Assembly (NCBI GenBank): GCA_002070105.1
Contig: MWCQ01000004.1
Span: 62,001-126,000 of the forward strand
Direction of reading: 5' to 3'
Origin: Firmicutes bacterium ADurb.Bin193
GTDB taxonomy: Bacteria > Bacillota > Clostridia > Monoglobales > Firm-18
DNA length: 64,000 nucleotides
Positions 7,140 through 20,659 of the stretch are shown piece by piece; the stretch's first letter is position 1; each line of letters opens with the position of its first letter. The notes beneath the pieces are model-generated. The model did no database searches. It was given only the letters and a program-made list of their open reading frames with translations, and was not told the DNA's origin. The translations under genes were made by a program, and so were the position numbers.

Positions 7140-8393
7140 TTATCTTTTTGAAAGCACATCGGCTTCATATTTTTTAACATCAATAAGCCATTTTTCCCGA
7201 ACGGGAACACTGCTTTTCTCGCAATAGTAATCCCATACCGCGGGATAAGGATAACCCTTAAGCTCCTCCAAAAGAGCAAGGCGCGTTGTAAGGTCACCAT
7301 CAAGCTCAGCCTTTTTAAGCTTTGCCGTTGGTTCCAAAAGCGCAGCCAAAAGCGCCTTCTGAGTATTTCTTGCGCCGATTACCCATGCGGCAATCCTGTT
7401 TATGCTTGCATCAAAATAATCAAGGGCGATAAAGGTTCTGTCCAAAAATCCGCCTCTTACAAGCTCCTGCGCGATTGACTGAAGCTCATCGTCAAATATC
7501 ACGACATGGTCGCTGTCCCAGCGCACGGGGCGGCTTACATGTAAAACCATATTATTAATATACAAAAAGAGCGAAGAAATCTTATTTGACACGGTTTCCG
7601 TCGGGTGGAAATGCCCCGTGTCGAAGGTAAGCGCCGTCTTATTCTTTACGGCATAGCCCATATAAAATTCATGGCTTCCGACAACATAGCTTTCGGAGCC
7701 TATTCCGAAAAGTTTGCTTTCAACCGAGTCAATATGATATTTTTTATCTATTTTGCGGGCTAATATTTTATCAAGACTGTCCGCAAGGCGCACTCTCGGT
7801 GCATACCTGTCCACGGGGATGTCCTTGTATCCGTCGGGAACCCAGATATTCATTGCGGAGGTTATGCCAAGCTCCTTCCCGAAATATTCGCTTATATTAC
7901 GACAGGCAATGCCGTGGTCAATCCAAAACTGCCTGATTTTTTCGTCGGAGTGGCTTAAGGTAAAACCGTCGTCACTTAAAGGGTGTGAAAAATATGTGGG
8001 ATTAAAGTCAAGCCCTATCCCCAAATCCTTTGCCCACGCAACCCATTTTTCAAAATGCTTCGGCAAAAGCTCGTCCCTGTCAACCTTCTTACCCTCTGTT
8101 TCCGCATATAACGCATGAATGTTTACCTTGTTTTTACCTGGAACGAGTGAAAAAACCTTTTCCATATCGGCGCGAAGCTCATCGCCGTTTGTTGCCTTTC
8201 CCGGATAGTTTCCGGTCGTCTGAATACCGCCCGTAAGCTCAGTGCCGCCTTCAAAGCCGCCGACATCGTCACCCTGCCAGCAGTGCAGTGAAATACTGAT
8301 TTTTTCAAGTTCTTCTATCGCCTTGTCGGTGTCAACACCGATGGACGCATACTGTTCCCTAGCCAGCTCATAGCTTTTTACTATCGATTCCAT
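7140..8393 (-). CDS. rhaA: L-rhamnose isomerase
   Basis: A 417-residue enzyme converting L-rhamnose to L-rhamnulose, the first step of the classical pathway. Its length matches the family (about 419). Recognisable stretches are the N-terminal [15 protein letters not shown], the metal-site region [12 protein letters not shown] and [16 protein letters not shown] at 8393 has GGAGG 7 bases upstream; an upstream in-frame ATG (8456) has none and overlaps the previous gene. It starts 16 bases after the stop of the aldolase gene, so the two form an operon. No rhamnulokinase is adjacent. Confidence 0.95.
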
Positions 8394-8409
8394 AATACAA
8401 CCTCCTTTT

Positions 8410-9495
8410 TTATTTACTCTGACTTTTTCTGTAACTTTCAGCTTCCCAGTTTGCAATAAAATCTATAAGCCAATCGGGCATAAACACGCCGCCGCCGAAG
8501 CTTTCGGAATATACCGCGATTTTGACCGTGTCTTTAAAAAGCATTAAATCCGTCAGGGCGGCTTTTTCGCTTTCGTCACACGCAAAAACCCCAAGCCCTT
8601 CAAACGCGACTATTTTAGGCTTAAACCCGTAACTGCTTGTAAAACTCTCAAGCGCTTCTTTTAAGTTTTCGTTTTTCCCGACAAACATTGCCTTGTGCTT
8701 ATAATATACCATGTGGTCGGGCGTAAAGGCGGAGTAAACCTTATTAAACCGCTCTCTGCTTTCGACATAGCTTTGTATCTCACGGTTACACTCAAACAAT
8801 ACGGACTGTGCGTCGATAATATTTTTAAGATTGCTCAAAACATCGGAAAAGTCCTTTGGAACAGGTGAAAAATCAGGCTTTCTTGATATTTTCGATATAA
8901 TTTTATCGAATATCATACACATAAGGCTTTTTATTTCATCGGGTGAATTACCAGCCGCAAAAACGCCGTGGTTAGCCAAAAACACAATATCCATACGCTT
9001 TCCCTTGCTTTTTTGTTCCTCAATTTTTTCCCTTACCGCACGCGCAAGAACATATCCCGGCATTGTCGGGGGTATCCATATCGCATCGCCGCCGAAAAGC
9101 TCCTCTGCCGCAGTCTCCCCCCGCACCGAACAGGTAAGCCCGTTAATAAGCGCGGGGTGGGTATGTACAACATAGCTTTGCGGGAACAGGTCGTGCAAAA
9201 GAGTCTCCACACTCGGCCTTTTGTCGTCATTCTCTCTTGCCGCCATAAGGTCCGCAAGAACAAGGCTCTCCCTCTCGTCCGAGGTTTCGGGATAGGTTTT
9301 ATCCCATATTTCGCTAAGCCTTTTCCTGTTCATTTTGACAAATCCGTCCTCGGTAATCGTCGCTAAGGATGTGCCCGACCCTTTTATATAAAGAAAATCC
9401 TTATCCTTATACGAGGTGTTGCCCCCGCCCGCAAGGACAAAGTCTTCGTTTCTACCGTAGAAATTTGAAATTTTCACAAGCTCGCCTAAACTCAT
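8410..9495 (-). CDS. Class II aldolase, probable rhamnulose-1-phosphate aldolase
   Basis: A 361-residue class II aldolase/adducin-family protein. The zinc ligands are visible: His111 and His113 in VHTHPAL and His176 in ANHGVFA. The usual catalytic Glu is Glu97 in [12 protein letters not shown] phosphate-binding N terminus GGGNTSYKD follows the start. The length and motifs resemble the aldolase half of the RhaE/YuxG bifunctional aldolase/lactaldehyde dehydrogenase, but the dehydrogenase half is absent. Being first in an operon with rhaA supports rhamnulose-1-phosphate as substrate; this is inference. ATG at 9495 with GGAGG upstream. Confidence 0.85.
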
Positions 9496-16206: not shown

Positions 16207-16265
16207 AAATGCAAATAAAGAAATAAAACCTTATGGGTTTTATATCTTTAATTGGAGTGTTTAAG

Positions 16266-17345
16266 ATGAGGGATAAAATTCGTGTGGTTGAACTTTTTTC
16301 AGGCGTTGGTGGACTTAGCTATGGTTTTTCAAAAAATATAGCTTTTGAAATATTAGCGGCTAATGAGATTGAAAAGGATATTGCAATAGCATATTCTTTA
16401 AACTATCCTAATGTAAAAATGATTAACAAAGATATTTGTGATGTAGAATTAGAAGACTTTTCAGACATTGTAAAAAGTGGAAATATTGATTTGGTAATCG
16501 GTGGTCCTCCCTGTCAGTCTTATTCTACTTTAGGTAAGAGGCGAATGGACGAAAGGGCAAATCTATTTAAACAATACAAACGCCTATTACATATGTTAAA
16601 TCCTAAAGCATTTATTTTTGAAAATGTTGTTGGAATTTTAAGTATGGATAACGGAATGTTATTTATAAAAATTAGGAAAGAATTTGAAGAATTAGGATAC
16701 AAATTGGAATATAAGGTTTTAAATGCTGTAGAATTTGGTGTGCCTCAAATGAGAGAACGAGTATTTTTAGTAGGAATAAAAGGTGATATGCGCTTCGAAT
16801 TTCCAGAAACAACACACGGTGAAGGGAAAACTCCCTTTGTTAATATGGAAGACGCCTTAAAAGACTTACCTGTTTTAAAAAGTGGTGAATCATCTTGCGA
16901 ATACGCAAGTTTACCAGATAATGATTTTTTGAAATTTGTAAGAAATTCTATTAGTCTTTCAGAACATAATGCTCCCAATAATGGGGCTCATCTCATTAAA
17001 ATCATGGAAACTTTAAAAGACGGGCAGAGCAAGAATGATTTGCCTGAAGAAATTCGACCCAAAAGCGGATATGGTAACACCTATGCAAAATTATGGTGGA
17101 AACGACCATCTACAACAATTACAAGAAATTTCGCATGTCCGTCTTCTTCAAGATGTATTCACCCAAGGGATTCAAGAGCAATGACAATCAGAGAAGGCGC
17201 AAGGCTTCAGAGTTTTCCTGATAATTATATTTTTTATGGTTCCGACAGCACCAAAAGGCTGGAAATTGGTAACGCAGTTCCCCCTTTGTTATCGATTCAT
17301 ATCGCAAATCAAGTGCAAAAAATGTTTGAATATAAACAGCAATAA
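16266..17345 (+). CDS. DNA (cytosine-5) methyltransferase
   Basis: A 359-residue modification enzyme that would protect host sites from the neighbouring nucleases. The m5C motifs appear in order: I (ELFSGVGGLSYGF), IV (GGPPCQSYSTLG) with catalytic Cys83, VI (FENV) with Glu119, VIII (RERVFLVGI) and X (IGNAVPPLLS). The target recognition region (about 185-290) is short, as for single-specificity enzymes; the recognised sequence cannot be read from it. ATG at 16266 has GGAGTG upstream; an ATG at 16233 has none. The gene is visibly AT-rich compared with its surroundings. Confidence 0.95.
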   Translation: MRDKIRVVELFSGVGGLSYGFSKNIAFEILAANEIEKDIAIAYSLNYPNVKMINKDICDVELEDFSDIVKSGNIDLVIGGPPCQSYSTLGKRRMDERANLFKQYKRLLHMLNPKAFIFENVVGILSMDNGMLFIKIRKEFEELGYKLEYKVLNAVEFGVPQMRERVFLVGIKGDMRFEFPETTHGEGKTPFVNMEDALKDLPVLKSGESSCEYASLPDNDFLKFVRNSISLSEHNAPNNGAHLIKIMETLKDGQSKNDLPEEIRPKSGYGNTYAKLWWKRPSTTITRNFACPSSSRCIHPRDSRAMTIREGARLQSFPDNYIFYGSDSTKRLEIGNAVPPLLSIHIANQVQKMFEYKQQ

Positions 17346-17375
17346 AGAGAAAGCAAAACTTGCTTTCTCTTTATT
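17341..17375. terminator. Bidirectional terminator inside the R-M island
   Basis: AATAAAGAGAAAGCAA and TTGCTTTCTCTTTATT form a perfect 16-base stem with a 3-base loop. It lies between the convergent methyltransferase and nuclease genes and contains the methyltransferase stop codon. Confidence 0.8.
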
Positions 17376-17378
17376 GGA

Positions 17379-18155
17379 TTAAAGAACAACGATTCTATCA
17401 TTTGTTGGATTTTCGTTAAGCCTATATCGAAAATACTCATCTGGAATTTCCATAATAAGTTGGCCTTCCATAGTAGACCTGGGTACAAAATTTATATTAT
17501 TAATGTTTGCTCTGCTTATATTGATTACTGAAACTTTACCATTAAAAACATCAAAGTGTATTACATAAGATATTATTTGTTCTTCAGAGAATTTTCTTAT
17601 TGCTTCTTCAAATTTATGCTTTTTTATATCATTGACTCCTGTAAACCCTGACTGTATTTCAAGATTAATTATTCCTTCTTCATTTTCAAACTGAATATCT
17701 GCAGTGGATGTTCTTGCAAACTGTGCTATATTGTTAAGATTATCATTCCCAATATCCAAAAGAAGATACTCATCTATATTGAATATTCTTGCGATATATC
17801 GTTTGAATATATTACATGCTAAATATCCTCTCATCCACGAAAAATATACTTCTTCTCTCGGACGACCATGATTATTAAATCGTGCAATAATATTTTCGTT
17901 TCTTATAATTTCGTAATTTCTATCAATGCCTTGCGCTAAAAATTCCTCAATATCAATTATTCTTACATTTTCATCAAGAATGTTATTAATTCTTACAAAA
18001 ATATCTCTTAATCTTGAGTTTAAAAAACTTATATGCTCCCAATTGATGTATACATCATCGGACTTTCCTTTAAAAAATTTTTTGCATTCTGTTTTATTTG
18101 TAAATCCTATATCTCTTCGATATTGTTGTTCATATGTAAGTAGCACAAATATCAC
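17379..18155 (-). CDS. Putative type II restriction endonuclease (candidate 1)
   Basis: A 258-residue protein. The segment STADIQF...INLEIQSGF looks like a PD-(D/E)xK core variant (Asp, then Glu-x-Gln), followed by NDIKKHKFEEAIRKF. Upstream is EVYFSWMRGYLACNIF. My recollection is that similar IEIQSGF blocks occur in some restriction enzymes of m5C systems, but I cannot name an isoschizomer. It ends four bases after the convergent terminator and begins four bases after the stop of the other nuclease candidate. AT-rich like the rest of the island. Assignment rests mainly on context. Confidence 0.6.
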   Translation of the reverse strand: MIFVLLTYEQQYRRDIGFTNKTECKKFFKGKSDDVYINWEHISFLNSRLRDIFVRINNILDENVRIIDIEEFLAQGIDRNYEIIRNENIIARFNNHGRPREEVYFSWMRGYLACNIFKRYIARIFNIDEYLLLDIGNDNLNNIAQFARTSTADIQFENEEGIINLEIQSGFTGVNDIKKHKFEEAIRKFSEEQIISYVIHFDVFNGKVSVINISRANINNINFVPRSTMEGQLIMEIPDEYFRYRLNENPTNDRIVVL

Positions 18156-18159
18156 CTTT

Positions 18160-18996
18160 TCATTTAATCAATGCTTTAATTTTCTCATAACTATGATGAA
18201 ATTGCATTTGTTCTTGATGCCATTGCACAAATCCAAAAGGAAGCTGAATTGTTGTTCCCCCACCAACTTTTCCGTATTCCGCTTGAGGCTTTTTTGCCTT
18301 AAATATTTCATTAATGGGAAATAATTCGTCCACATCATTTTCACCTAACTTATTGATATACCAAATTACATCTGCCCAATCATTTTCGTTTTTAGCCAAG
18401 CCCCGCGAAAAACAAAAATCGATTATTTCGCAAATATTTTCGTTAAACCAATCTATTAACCCGTCATACAAGTTTTTATCATATTTTTTAAGTGACTCAG
18501 CAACTAATCTATGTTTTCTAACCTCATATACCTTATGCTTACCGTCGATTTCATCTATTATTGACAAAACATCCGGGGCTGACCCCCAAAATAATTTTAT
18601 TGCCCTTTTAACCCTATCGGGTATTTTTTTGCTATATTGCAATTCAAAACCTCTAATAAAACGCATATCTCCAATAAGGTATACTTGACCACATAGGCTT
18701 TTTTTAATCGAAATATTTAATTTAGTTCCGTCACTAAGATTTATGTATATGTCGGTTTTCGATTTAGTTTTACAGTCGCTTAAAACGCCTTCAACATTTG
18801 TCTCTTTTAATCCGCCAAAGGAAATAGATGCTATTTGGCAATTTTCTTTGAATGTTCTTTTAAGCAAACGCTTTTGAAATCCCTTATTATCTTTTATTAA
18901 ATTTTCTATCAGCTTTTCATTTTCATGCCCCGAAAGCTTTGCATGTTTCCAACCCTGTGCTCTGTTTCTTTTCTCTATTTTACTCAACCCCTTCAA
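18160..18996 (-). CDS. Putative type II restriction endonuclease (candidate 2)
   Basis: A 278-residue protein. The segment KSKTDIYINLSDG...LNISIKKS fits a PD-(D/E)xK nuclease core, with Asp and a terminal Lys pair, followed by CGQVYLIGD. Basic N terminus (KIEKRNRAQGWKHAKLSGHE) likely contacts DNA. The start is uncertain: TTG at 18996 overlaps the controller gene by 17 bases and lacks a good binding site, and another TTG lies three codons later. With the 258-residue neighbour it may form a two-subunit enzyme, or the two may be independent nucleases. No experimental homologue can be named from sequence alone. Confidence 0.6.
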   Translation of the reverse strand: MKGLSKIEKRNRAQGWKHAKLSGHENEKLIENLIKDNKGFQKRLLKRTFKENCQIASISFGGLKETNVEGVLSDCKTKSKTDIYINLSDGTKLNISIKKSLCGQVYLIGDMRFIRGFELQYSKKIPDRVKRAIKLFWGSAPDVLSIIDEIDGKHKVYEVRKHRLVAESLKKYDKNLYDGLIDWFNENICEIIDFCFSRGLAKNENDWADVIWYINKLGENDVDELFPINEIFKAKKPQAEYGKVGGGTTIQLPFGFVQWHQEQMQFHHSYEKIKALIK

Positions 18997-19189
18997 ATAA
19001 TTGGGAAAGCGAGACTTCTAAACCCTTTGCTATCTTTTCAAGATTTATAATTGATACATTTCGCTTGCCAAGCTCCACACTTGCGAAGTAAGTTCTGTCC
19101 ATACCGATTTTAAGCGCGAACTTTTCCTGACTAAGTCCAGTTATTTTCCGAAGTTCACGAATCCGCTCACCTATTTTTACTGTAATCAT
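18980..19189 (-). CDS. XRE-family controller protein of the R-M system
   Basis: A 69-residue protein that is almost entirely one helix-turn-helix domain: LRKITGLSQEKFALKIGMDRTYFASVELG. Size and position match C (controller) proteins, which delay nuclease expression until methylation is complete. It starts at ATG 19189 and leads the nuclease operon, overlapping the next gene. A sigma-A promoter and an imperfect dyad lie upstream, consistent with autoregulation. Confidence 0.85.
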   Translation of the reverse strand: MITVKIGERIRELRKITGLSQEKFALKIGMDRTYFASVELGKRNVSIINLEKIAKGLEVSLSQLFEGVE

Positions 19190-19224
19190 AAACTATCACC
19201 ATTTTCTTTTTAGTATTATGCATT

Positions 19225-19253: not shown

Positions 19254-19369
19254 CCGCATATAAGCAACACAAGAAAACTGGTCAACCCTTTTGTACTCTT
19301 AAAATATCCCTCTTTTCATTGACAAACCAAAAACAAAAATGTAGAATATCCGATAAGGAGATGAACAAA

Positions 19370-20659
19370 ATGAAACTTGAGCTGATGCACCCCGCCGACC
19401 AGCTTGTAACCATTATGGAGAGGATTTATTCCTGCGGAATGACGACAACATCGGGAGGGAATCTTTCCATACTTGACGACAACGGCGATATATGGATTAC
19501 TCCCGCGGGGGTGGACAAGGGTTCTCTTACCCGAAACGATATGGTAAGGGTGTCCGCAAACGGCAAAATAACGGGGAATCACCGCCCTTCAAGCGAGTGG
19601 CCCTTCCACAGTATCGTGTATAAAAGAAGGCCGGATATCAAGGCGGTTTTGCACGCCCACCCGCCCGCGCTGTTAAGCTTCAGCATTGTACGCAAAATAC
19701 CCCATACAAGGCTTATACCCAACGCCGATATTATTTGCGGTGATATAAAAATGGCGGAGTATGAGCTCCCCGGAAGCGCAGAGCTTGGGGAAAACATCGC
19801 AAAAATGTTTGATACCGGAAGCAATGTTGTTATGCTCGAAAACCACGGGGTTGTTGTGGGGGACAAGGATATTTTCAGTGCATTTCACGCATTTGAAACG
19901 CTTGACTTTTGCGCAAGGCTTGAAATAAACGCACTTCGGCTTGGGAACATAAAGCCGCTTACCGAAAAGTATGTCGAAATTTCGCGCAATAAAAACAACG
20001 CACTTTTAGAGGAATTTGAAGCAAAAAGCTATTCGAGCGAAGAGCGCGAGGCGCGTATGAAGATGTGTGAGCTTGTAAAGCGTTCATACAACCAAAGACT
20101 TTTTACAAGCACGCAGGGCACCTTCTCCGAACGCCTTTCGGACGGAGCGTTTATTATAACGCCCTACGGAATGGATAGAAAGTACATAACTCCTGACGAT
20201 ATCGTGCGTATAGAGGATGGAAAAAAAGAGCGCGGGAAAAACCCAAGCCGTTCTGTTATTCTTCACCGCGAAATATATGCCCGCCATCCGGAGGTCAATT
20301 CGATAATTATTGCCCACCCGCCCAACATTATGGCGTTTGCGGTAAGCGATACCGATTTTGATTCTAAAATAATTCCCGAAAGCTATATTATGCTTCGGGA
20401 TATCCCAAAGGTCCCGTTTGGCTCAAGCTTTTTACAGCCTGCCCTGTTTGCGAAGGAAATAAGCCCCCAAACCCCCGTTGTTCTTGTGGAAAACGACTGT
20501 GTAATCGTGGCGGGGGAGTCGCTTATAAACGCATTTGACAGGCTTGAGGTTGCGGAATTCAGCGCAAACGCAATTATATCCGCGCGTCAGGTCGGTGAGA
20601 TTGTTAAAATCAGCGAATACGAAACGGAAAGAATAAAAACCGCCTTTAACTTAAAGTAA
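19370..20659 (+). CDS. Tandem class II aldolase/adducin-domain protein
   Basis: A 429-residue protein made of two class II aldolase domains. The first (about 1-205) keeps the active site: Glu76 in SSEWPFH, His95 and His97 in LHAHPP, His159 in ENHGV. The second (about 225-420) aligns well (NPSRSVILH, IIAHPP, VENDCV), but the Glu is replaced by Ser, the first zinc His by Ile and the third by Asp. It is therefore probably structural or regulatory. The first domain resembles L-fuculose/ribulose-5-phosphate type enzymes. ATG at 19370 has AAGGAG at good distance. Substrate unknown. Confidence 0.85.
   Translation: MKLELMHPADQLVTIMERIYSCGMTTTSGGNLSILDDNGDIWITPAGVDKGSLTRNDMVRVSANGKITGNHRPSSEWPFHSIVYKRRPDIKAVLHAHPPALLSFSIVRKIPHTRLIPNADIICGDIKMAEYELPGSAELGENIAKMFDTGSNVVMLENHGVVVGDKDIFSAFHAFETLDFCARLEINALRLGNIKPLTEKYVEISRNKNNALLEEFEAKSYSSEEREARMKMCELVKRSYNQRLFTSTQGTFSERLSDGAFIITPYGMDRKYITPDDIVRIEDGKKERGKNPSRSVILHREIYARHPEVNSIIIAHPPNIMAFAVSDTDFDSKIIPESYIMLRDIPKVPFGSSFLQPALFAKEISPQTPVVLVENDCVIVAGESLINAFDRLEVAEFSANAIISARQVGEIVKISEYETERIKTAFNLK

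What the first reader, a model, noticed from the sequence alone, without database searches (positions are those of the whole stretch)
19370..20659. Fused class II aldolase with a degenerate second domain
Aligning the halves shows domain 1 keeps Glu76, His95, His97 and His159. In domain 2 the matching positions are Ser, Ile, His and Asp (NPSRSV, IIAHPP, VENDCV). The fold appears retained but zinc binding and catalysis lost, so domain 2 may serve as an oligomer half-site or regulatory module, like adducin-type inactive domains.
Basis: seen in the sequence. Interest (0 to 1): 0.5.

Follow-up and report, generated by a model that had tools for sequence, protein, structure and literature searches.

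The report
Tandem aldolase with split active site
This bacterial enzyme is two copies of a sugar-splitting aldolase joined end to end, in which the first copy keeps the metal site and the second, seemingly dead copy appears to be kept because it supplies the missing catalytic residue to the first.

Summary
The gene (window 19370-20659, +, 429 aa) encodes two class II aldolase (PF00596) domains; domain 1 (D1) has Glu/His/His/His and domain 2 (D2) Ser/Ile/His/Asp at the matching positions.

It is not recent decay. In 126 distinct two-domain proteins (this one included), D1 keeps all four residues in 126 of 126, while D2 never has the Glu or the first and third His (0 of 126 each).

FucA-type aldolases borrow a catalytic Tyr (Tyr113') from the neighbouring subunit. 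D2 keeps that segment as an invariant P-E-x-Y (E and Y 126 of 126); D1 has lost it (E 4, Y 6 of 126). Profile alignment places D2 Tyr342 on the FucA-type Tyr. The degeneration is complementary, so the likely unit is a dimer that mimics the FucA tetramer, with two active sites, each a D1 metal half plus a D2 donor half. The geometry is inferred; no coordinates or multimer model were available.

Context in some genomes suggests a 6-deoxyhexose-phosphate aldolase. I found no published description in the open library searched.

The parts
19355..19360 (+). Shine-Dalgarno-like AAGGAG, 9 nt before the ATG at 19370
   Evidence: read in the sequence
19370..20659 (+). Two-domain class II aldolase gene, 429 aa plus stop (an in-frame ATG also at 19361)
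   Evidence: PF00596 twice; 75-77% identical full-length relatives in two other genera of the same family
19400..19924 (+). Domain 1 (PF00596 match): metal/phosphate/base half of the active site
   Evidence: 156.4 bits; best structural matches DrdA and FucA
19595..19597 (+). Glu79 (finding's Glu76; FucA Glu73 position), 126 of 126
19652..19660 (+). His98-Ala-His100, metal ligands 1 and 2, 126 of 126 each
19718..19729 (+). D1 counterpart of the trans segment (P-N-A-D): Glu position E in 4 of 126, Tyr position Y in 6 of 126
19844..19846 (+). His162, metal ligand 3, 126 of 126
20060..20569 (+). Domain 2 (PF00596 match): no metal site, keeps the trans-donor segment
   Evidence: (93.5 bits)
20252..20254 (+). 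Ser298 in place of the catalytic Glu (S 110, A 14, F 2; Glu 0 of 126)
20309..20317 (+). Ile317-Ala-His319 in place of His-x-His (first position His 0 of 126; second His 117 of 126)
20375..20386 (+). Pro339-Glu340-Ser341-Tyr342, proposed trans-donor segment; P, E and Y each 126 of 126
   Evidence: Tyr342 paired with the Tyr of the FucA/DrdA-type profile and P-E with P-E of the nearest single-domain aldolases
20495..20497 (+). Asp379 in place of metal ligand His 3 (His 0 of 126)

Best explanation
The protein is a pseudo-symmetric class II aldolase. An ancestral FucA-like domain was duplicated in tandem and the two copies then divided the composite active site. D1 kept the metal ligands, the base Glu and the phosphate-binding residues; D2 lost the metal ligands but kept the segment (Pro-Glu-x-Tyr) that in a homotetrameric class II aldolase reaches into the neighbouring subunit's site and carries the catalytic acid/base (Tyr113' in FucA). 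Two chains would assemble as an alternating D1-D2-D1-D2 ring like the FucA C4 tetramer, giving two working sites (D1 metal half + D2 donor half) and two dead D2-D1 interfaces. Shown here: the residue pattern and its universality in the sample, the mapping of the segment, the fold of both domains. Inferred: the dimeric ring, that Tyr342 (or Glu340) acts chemically in D1's site, whether this happens within a chain or between chains, and the substrate, most likely a 1-phosphorylated 6-deoxyketose such as L-rhamnulose- or L-fuculose-1-phosphate cleaved to DHAP and L-lactaldehyde.
For: D1 Glu/His/His/His 126 of 126 each against D2 0/0/117/0 of 126. The trans segment shows the mirror image: D2 P339, E340 and Y342 126 of 126; D1 counterparts E 4 and Y 6 of 126. 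HMM-HMM alignment puts D2 Tyr342 on the Tyr of the FucA/DrdA-type profile and D2 Pro-Glu on the Pro-Glu of the nearest single-domain aldolases. In FucA the residues are Glu73 (own subunit) and Tyr113' (neighbour), with Asn29, Thr43, Gly44, Ser71 and Ser72 binding phosphate (passages of PMC11841055); D1 keeps the Asn (126 of 126), Thr 118 of 126 (Ser 8), first Ser 126 and second Ser 81 of 126. D2 is not drifting: mean column entropy 1.23 bits against 1.10 in D1. Both domains model well (pLDDT 91.8, pTM 0.90). D1 and D2 are each one group, joined to each other in the tree, the join weakly supported (82/79). A second tandem family, about 370-400 aa, shows the same pattern in 7 of 7 distinct sequences: intact metal site in D1, lost in D2, and an invariant P-x-LDDFAQ at the trans segment only in D2. 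Substrate: a RhaE-like aldolase gene follows directly on the same strand in 10 of 10 genomes of one genus that carry the gene; L-rhamnose isomerase, rhamnulokinase, lactaldehyde reductase or RhaE-like genes lie in 6 of 80 named loci and in 5 of 12 loci chosen partly for that reason.
Against: No multimer prediction or coordinates: the ring and the distance from Tyr342 to the D1 metal were not measured. Invariance of E340 and Y342 could serve folding or an unrelated D2 function. The register differs by profile: against FucA-type sequences Tyr342 aligns with the Tyr, against the nearest single-domain proteins (Pro-Glu-Ala) Glu340 is the shared residue, so which one acts is open; in the first mixed MAFFT alignment the 4c24 Tyr column fell on Ile in D2. 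A fold of D1 alone, meant to show which face is buried by D2, gave no informative change (111-130: 95/93 in the full model, 93/92 alone). The neighbourhood is not conserved in most loci (74 of 80 without any of the four deoxyhexose genes). No curated NCBIfam cut-off is reached.
Confidence: 0.72

Rival explanations
1. D2 is a regulatory (allosteric) pocket: a metal-free aldolase fold that still binds a sugar phosphate or other anion and modulates D1.
For: D2 keeps part of the phosphate site (T267 120 of 126, S296 124 of 126) and has gained an Arg at the second phosphate-Ser position (R297: R 111, K 11 of 126) and an invariant R273 (126 of 126), which would suit anion binding.
Against: The phosphate-site Asn is replaced by Thr (124 of 126). 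Regulation alone does not explain why the trans segment is invariant in D2 and lost in D1. The same Arg could simply fill the dead pocket.
Confidence: 0.13
2. D2 is only a structural filler that keeps the ring closed (adducin-like inactive domain), with no part in chemistry.
For: Metal site lost in all 126. Adducin's aldolase domain is likewise a tetrameric form without catalysis (passages of PMC12599920).
Against: A filler would not need an invariant Glu and Tyr in exactly the segment that reaches the neighbour's site, nor explain their loss from D1.
Confidence: 0.1
3. The second domain of this copy is merely decaying.
For: None beyond the lost residues themselves.
Against: The same replacements hold in 126 of 126 distinct homologues down to 45% identity to the query; D2 entropy is close to D1's; no stop or frameshift in this gene.
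Confidence: 0.01
4. Same split-site architecture, but the reaction is not an aldol cleavage of a deoxyhexose phosphate: for example decarboxylation of 3-oxo-tetronate 4-phosphate (OtnC-like) or 5-deoxyribulose-1-phosphate cleavage (DrdA-like).
For: Best NCBIfam score for the whole protein is OtnC (165.5 bits, cut-off 250), then FucA PRK06833 (157.7, cut-off 264). YgbL in the PDB carries a similar T-P-Y-x-x-M-R segment. DrdA is the top structural match of D1, though tied with FucA (Z 27.1 against 26.8).
Against: The gene neighbours that recur are rhamnose and lactaldehyde genes where any recur. I did not search the loci for otnK, drdK or mtnA homologues.
Confidence: 0.35

Closest known systems
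[quoted passage not shown] coli 1fua, S. pneumoniae 4c24) and DrdA (6btd/6btg)
   Same: Fold and metal-site residues of D1 (Z 25.8-27.1, 25-31% identity); composite site at the subunit interface with Glu73 and Tyr113' (PMC11841055 passages).
   Different: FucA and DrdA are single-domain subunits, each carrying both halves of the site; here the halves are divided between two fused domains and each domain has lost the half the other keeps.
RhaE / RhaEW rhamnulose-1-phosphate aldolase (PMC3870299, passages)
   Same: Class II aldolase fold; genes lie next to or near this gene in several genomes, including this window.
   Different: RhaE-like proteins have one recognisable PF00596 domain and belong to another branch; RhaEW carries a C-terminal dehydrogenase that is absent here.
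Single-domain aldolases of about 272 aa (L007-L009, L165, L167 and others)
   Same: Closest single-domain sequences by profile (D1 E 5.6e-45, 38% identity; D2 E 1.4e-29); share the Pro-Glu of the trans segment with D2.
   Different: One domain with an intact metal site and the Pro-Glu together; a Cys/Gly-rich tail and a C-terminal helix that I recall, without a test, as typical of microcompartment cargo.
Adducin head domain (8iah)
   Same: Aldolase fold without catalytic metal, tetramer (PMC12599920 passages).
   Different: One aldolase domain followed by neck and tail (recalled); here an active and an inactive domain are fused.
Second tandem class II aldolase family of about 370-400 aa (L177-L180, L189-L194)
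   Same: Intact N-terminal metal site; degenerate C-terminal domain with an invariant trans segment (P-x-LDDFAQ, 7 of 7).
   Different: C-terminal domain truncated, different segment chemistry (Asp-Asp), much rarer (6 of 291 genomes, against 55 of 391 for the main family).

Membership tests
Class II aldolase/adducin superfamily (PF00596) | PF00596 profile over the curated cut-off | tested here: met
   Both domains: 156.4 and 93.5 bits against 22.2; D2 alone E 2.3e-26
Class II aldolase, catalytically complete subunit | Metal ligands His-x-His + His and base Glu/Asp in each domain | tested here: not met
   Met in D1 (126 of 126), not met in D2 (0 of 126 for Glu, His1 and His3)
Class II aldolase, composite interface site | A trans-acting residue segment supplied by the neighbouring subunit or domain | tested here: inconclusive
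   Sequence part met: segment invariant in D2 and aligned with the FucA-type Tyr; its position in space not measured
Class II aldolase, C4 homotetramer | Oligomeric state | not testable with these tools
   Monomer model only; pseudo-tetramer of two chains inferred
L-fuculose-phosphate aldolase (NCBIfam PRK06833, TIGR01086, FucA_Meth) | Curated equivalog cut-off | tested here: not met
   157.7/264, 113.3/400.25 and 137.4/250 bits for the whole protein
3-oxo-tetronate 4-phosphate decarboxylase OtnC (NF043034) | Curated equivalog cut-off | tested here: not met
   165.5 of 250 bits
Methylthioribulose-1-phosphate dehydratase MtnB (TIGR03328) | Curated equivalog cut-off | tested here: not met
   122.5 of 137.05 bits, summed over two domains; 80.0 for D1 alone
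[quoted passage not shown]
   Only PF00596 found
Adducin | Neck and tail region after a single aldolase domain (recalled) | tested here: not met
   429 aa filled by two PF00596 domains

The most novel reading that the evidence does not exclude
Tandem class II aldolases follow a general rule: whenever the domain is duplicated in one chain, the N-terminal copy keeps the metal half and the C-terminal copy keeps only the trans-donor half. Besides the main family (126 proteins) the rule fits a second tandem family (7 of 7, invariant P-x-LDDFAQ in D2 only), and possibly RhaE itself, whose unassigned C-terminal half has an invariant Pro-Asp followed by His/Gln (23 of 23 rows) that aligns, with weak statistics (HHalign probability 16-22%), to the same segment. 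RhaE would then be a hidden third case and would have been taken for a single-domain enzyme.
Probability: 0.4. Interest if true: 0.62.

Novelty: new variant of a known kind. Interest (0 to 1): 0.5.

Why it matters
A composite active site that is normally repeated four times in a ring has here apparently been divided between two fused domains, so that a domain annotators would call a dead pseudoenzyme is needed for catalysis. It is a clean natural example of complementary degeneration after duplication, it is testable with a few point mutants, and it warns against reading loss of metal ligands in a second domain as loss of function. It also gives a mechanism-based name to a widespread Clostridia/Paenibacillaceae protein that meets no curated NCBIfam cut-off among those listed.

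Tried and rejected
Fold of D1 alone as a test of which D1 face D2 covers: no drop in confidence of the D1 segment, so the lower confidence of the D2 segment (331-350: 79 and 75) cannot be read as 'exposed because the partner chain is missing'. Whether the donor acts within or between chains stays open.

Structural search: only single-domain chains were listed, mostly aligned to D1; D2 was hardly tested there. No coordinates are handed out by the tool, so no distances were measured.

First mixed alignment of D1, D2 and 43 single domains: the trans segment was misaligned by gaps, so the 'Y113' column tally of that call (Ile in D2) is not used; profile alignments replaced it.

Conserved neighbourhood as a route to function: mostly negative. 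In 66 of the 80 named loci (those where the gene was picked up) 30 upstream and 29 downstream same-strand neighbours lie within 120 bp, of many kinds. The adjacent nicotinate phosphoribosyltransferase recurs in 1 of 92 loci only.

HHalign of the RhaE C-terminal half with D2 or with single-domain aldolases: probability 16 and 22%; kept as a lead only.

Literature: no paper describing tandem class II aldolase domains with a split site in searches (open-licence PMC only); some served other points. APIP Glu139' was looked for and not found; I do not rely on it. Asp120 of AraD at a site formed by two subunits: passages of PMC5434028.

Sampling limits: the 80 named loci are the best 80 of 581, found with two motifs (G[ML]TTTSGGN and A[FY]D[RK]LEVxE), so they are biased to close relatives; the genome searches were not motif-limited but used E thresholds of 1e-10 or 1e-40. 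In one search, 141 of 188 ORFs matching the profile counted as two-domain (47 did not); with P0001 added there were 142 rows, of which 126 distinct remained after dropping identical ones.

Full report
WHAT IS THERE. The gene runs from 19370 to 20659 on the + strand (429 aa, AAGGAG nine bases upstream) and consists of two PF00596 domains and little else. The two domains align over 190 columns at 28% identity, HHalign probability 99.8.

IS IT A FAMILY OR A DECAYED COPY. Full-length relatives occur in 6 of 8 genomes of the same family only if single-domain matches are counted; two-domain matches are in 3 of 8, 4 of 51 in the order, 55 of 391 in the class and 9 of 398 in the phylum draw (all four counts include this genome). 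A scan of named genomes gave 80 loci, mostly Clostridia MAGs, plus Paenibacillus and Cohnella. From these and the genome loci I kept 141 ORFs with both domains (47 further ORFs matched only in part), 126 distinct with this one. D1: Glu, His, His, His each 126 of 126. D2: Glu 0 (Ser 110, Ala 14, Phe 2), first His 0 (Ile 111), second His 117, third His 0 (Asp 95, Gln 13, Asn 9, Glu 5, others). As control, 43 of 43 single-domain relatives keep all the ligands, 25 with Glu and 18 with Asp at the base position. D2 is nearly as conserved as D1 (mean entropy 1.23 against 1.10 bits). So D2 lost its metal site once, long ago, and has been kept under selection since.

WHAT D2 IS KEPT FOR. In FucA the active site lies between subunits: Glu73 and the phosphate ligands come from one subunit, Tyr113' from the next (passages of PMC11841055); in AraD the site is likewise formed by two subunits and Asp120 is a catalytic acid (passages of PMC5434028). 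In the D1/D2 alignment this region reads IPNADIICG in D1 and IPESYIMLR in D2. D2's Pro339, Glu340 and Tyr342 are each invariant (126 of 126). D1's counterparts are mainly Asn at the Glu position (E 4 of 126) and anything at the Tyr position (Y 6 of 126). HMM-HMM alignment with a small FucA/DrdA-type profile (three sequences) puts Tyr342 on its conserved Tyr; the same profile puts D1's Leu118 there, so D1 has no Tyr in either register. Against the nearest single-domain group the shared residues are Pro-Glu. So the donor may be Tyr342, Glu340 or both; in any case D2 has it and D1 does not. Each domain has lost the half that the other keeps. This is what one expects if the domains alternate in a FucA-like ring of two chains, where every D1 metal site faces a D2 donor face and the other two interfaces are dead.

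STRUCTURE. AlphaFold2 with 42 relatives gave pLDDT 91.8 and pTM 0.90 for the whole chain; D1 matches 6btg (Z 27.1, 200 residues, 2.2 A), FucA 1dzz (Z 26.8) and YgbL 6vop (Z 26.2), which are ties. A D1-only model did not help to decide which faces meet.

ORIGIN. In a maximum-likelihood tree of 24 D1, 24 D2, 43 single domains and 3 PDB sequences, D1 and D2 are each one group (96/95 and 100/99) and lie next to each other (82/79, weak; long branches, including L187 and L188, meet there). An internal duplication is likely but not proven.

REACTION. No curated NCBIfam cut-off is reached among the families listed (best OtnC 165.5 of 250 bits, FucA 157.7 of 264). D1 has the FucA-type phosphate and metal residues. 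Neighbours: in one genus 10 of 10 genomes carrying the gene have a RhaE-like aldolase gene directly downstream on the same strand; in two Paenibacillus loci (L100, L108) the gene stands directly before an aldolase/dehydrogenase fusion with a rhamnulokinase further on, and L100 also has L-rhamnose isomerase; in L210 L-rhamnose isomerase and a RhaE-like gene follow 2 kb away, and in L213 it lies beside lactaldehyde reductase (over the equivalog cut-off) and small tandem ORFs that look like microcompartment shell genes (my reading, no search). Across the 80 named loci 6 have at least one of RhaA, RhaB, FucO or RhaE; the other 12 loci (5 of 12) were chosen partly because such genes had been seen nearby. 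This window itself has rhaA (7140-8456, -) and a RhaE-like gene (8410-9495, -) 10 kb away. I therefore favour a 6-deoxyketose-1-phosphate aldolase, with moderate confidence.

A SECOND CASE. The search turned up another, rarer tandem family (6 of 291 genomes; 7 distinct sequences with L178). There too D1 has PSSE, HTH and NHG in 7 of 7, D2 has lost them, and P-x-LDDFAQ at the trans segment is the most conserved stretch of D2 but absent from D1. HHalign joins its D2 to ours (93.9%) and to single-domain aldolases (95.3%). RhaE's C-terminal half, with an invariant Pro-Asp in 23 of 23 rows, may be a third case, on weak statistics.

PRIOR WORK. I found no description of such a split-site tandem class II aldolase in three searches aimed at it of an open-licence library; subscription journals are not held, so this does not show that it is unpublished. 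The RhaE paper (PMC3870299, passages) treats RhaE as a class II aldolase domain homologous to RhaD and FucA; the passages I saw mention no second domain.

VERDICT. Observation confirmed; interpretation partly supported and sharpened: not a dead or regulatory appendix but, most likely, the donor half of the site. New variant of a known kind; interest 0.5.

Noticed in passing
window 8410-9495 (-): RhaE-like aldolase (361 aa, no dehydrogenase) overlapping or adjoining rhaA (7140-8456, -). Its C-terminal half, not matched by Pfam, has an invariant Pro-Asp-His/Gln and could be a truncated second aldolase domain.
   Followed up: partly
L177-L180, L189-L194: A second tandem class II aldolase family of about 370-400 aa with an intact D1 and a truncated D2 that keeps only P-x-LDDFAQ at the trans segment.
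   Followed up: partly
L208, L216, L219, L081, L211 (and L122 in part): Recurring genes near the two-domain aldolase in several lineages: sorbitol-6-phosphate-dehydrogenase-like SDR, a zinc alcohol dehydrogenase and (not L211) a PHP-domain protein, sometimes with a RhaE-like aldolase. Pathway unknown to me.
   Followed up: partly
G381 (L053, L054, L055): One genome carries three two-domain paralogues; two of them (45% identical to the query) are the most divergent members found.
   Followed up: no
window 16233-19190: A DNA cytosine methyltransferase-like gene, two genes on the opposite strand that look like restriction-related ones and the end of a helix-turn-helix-like ORF lie directly upstream; it looks like an inserted restriction-modification island (reading of the ORFs, no search).
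   Followed up: no
D2 residues R273 and R297 (window 20177-20179, 20249-20251): The dead D2 pocket has an invariant Arg and a near-invariant Arg/Lys where D1 has Lys and a phosphate-binding Ser; it may fill the pocket or bind an anion.
   Followed up: no
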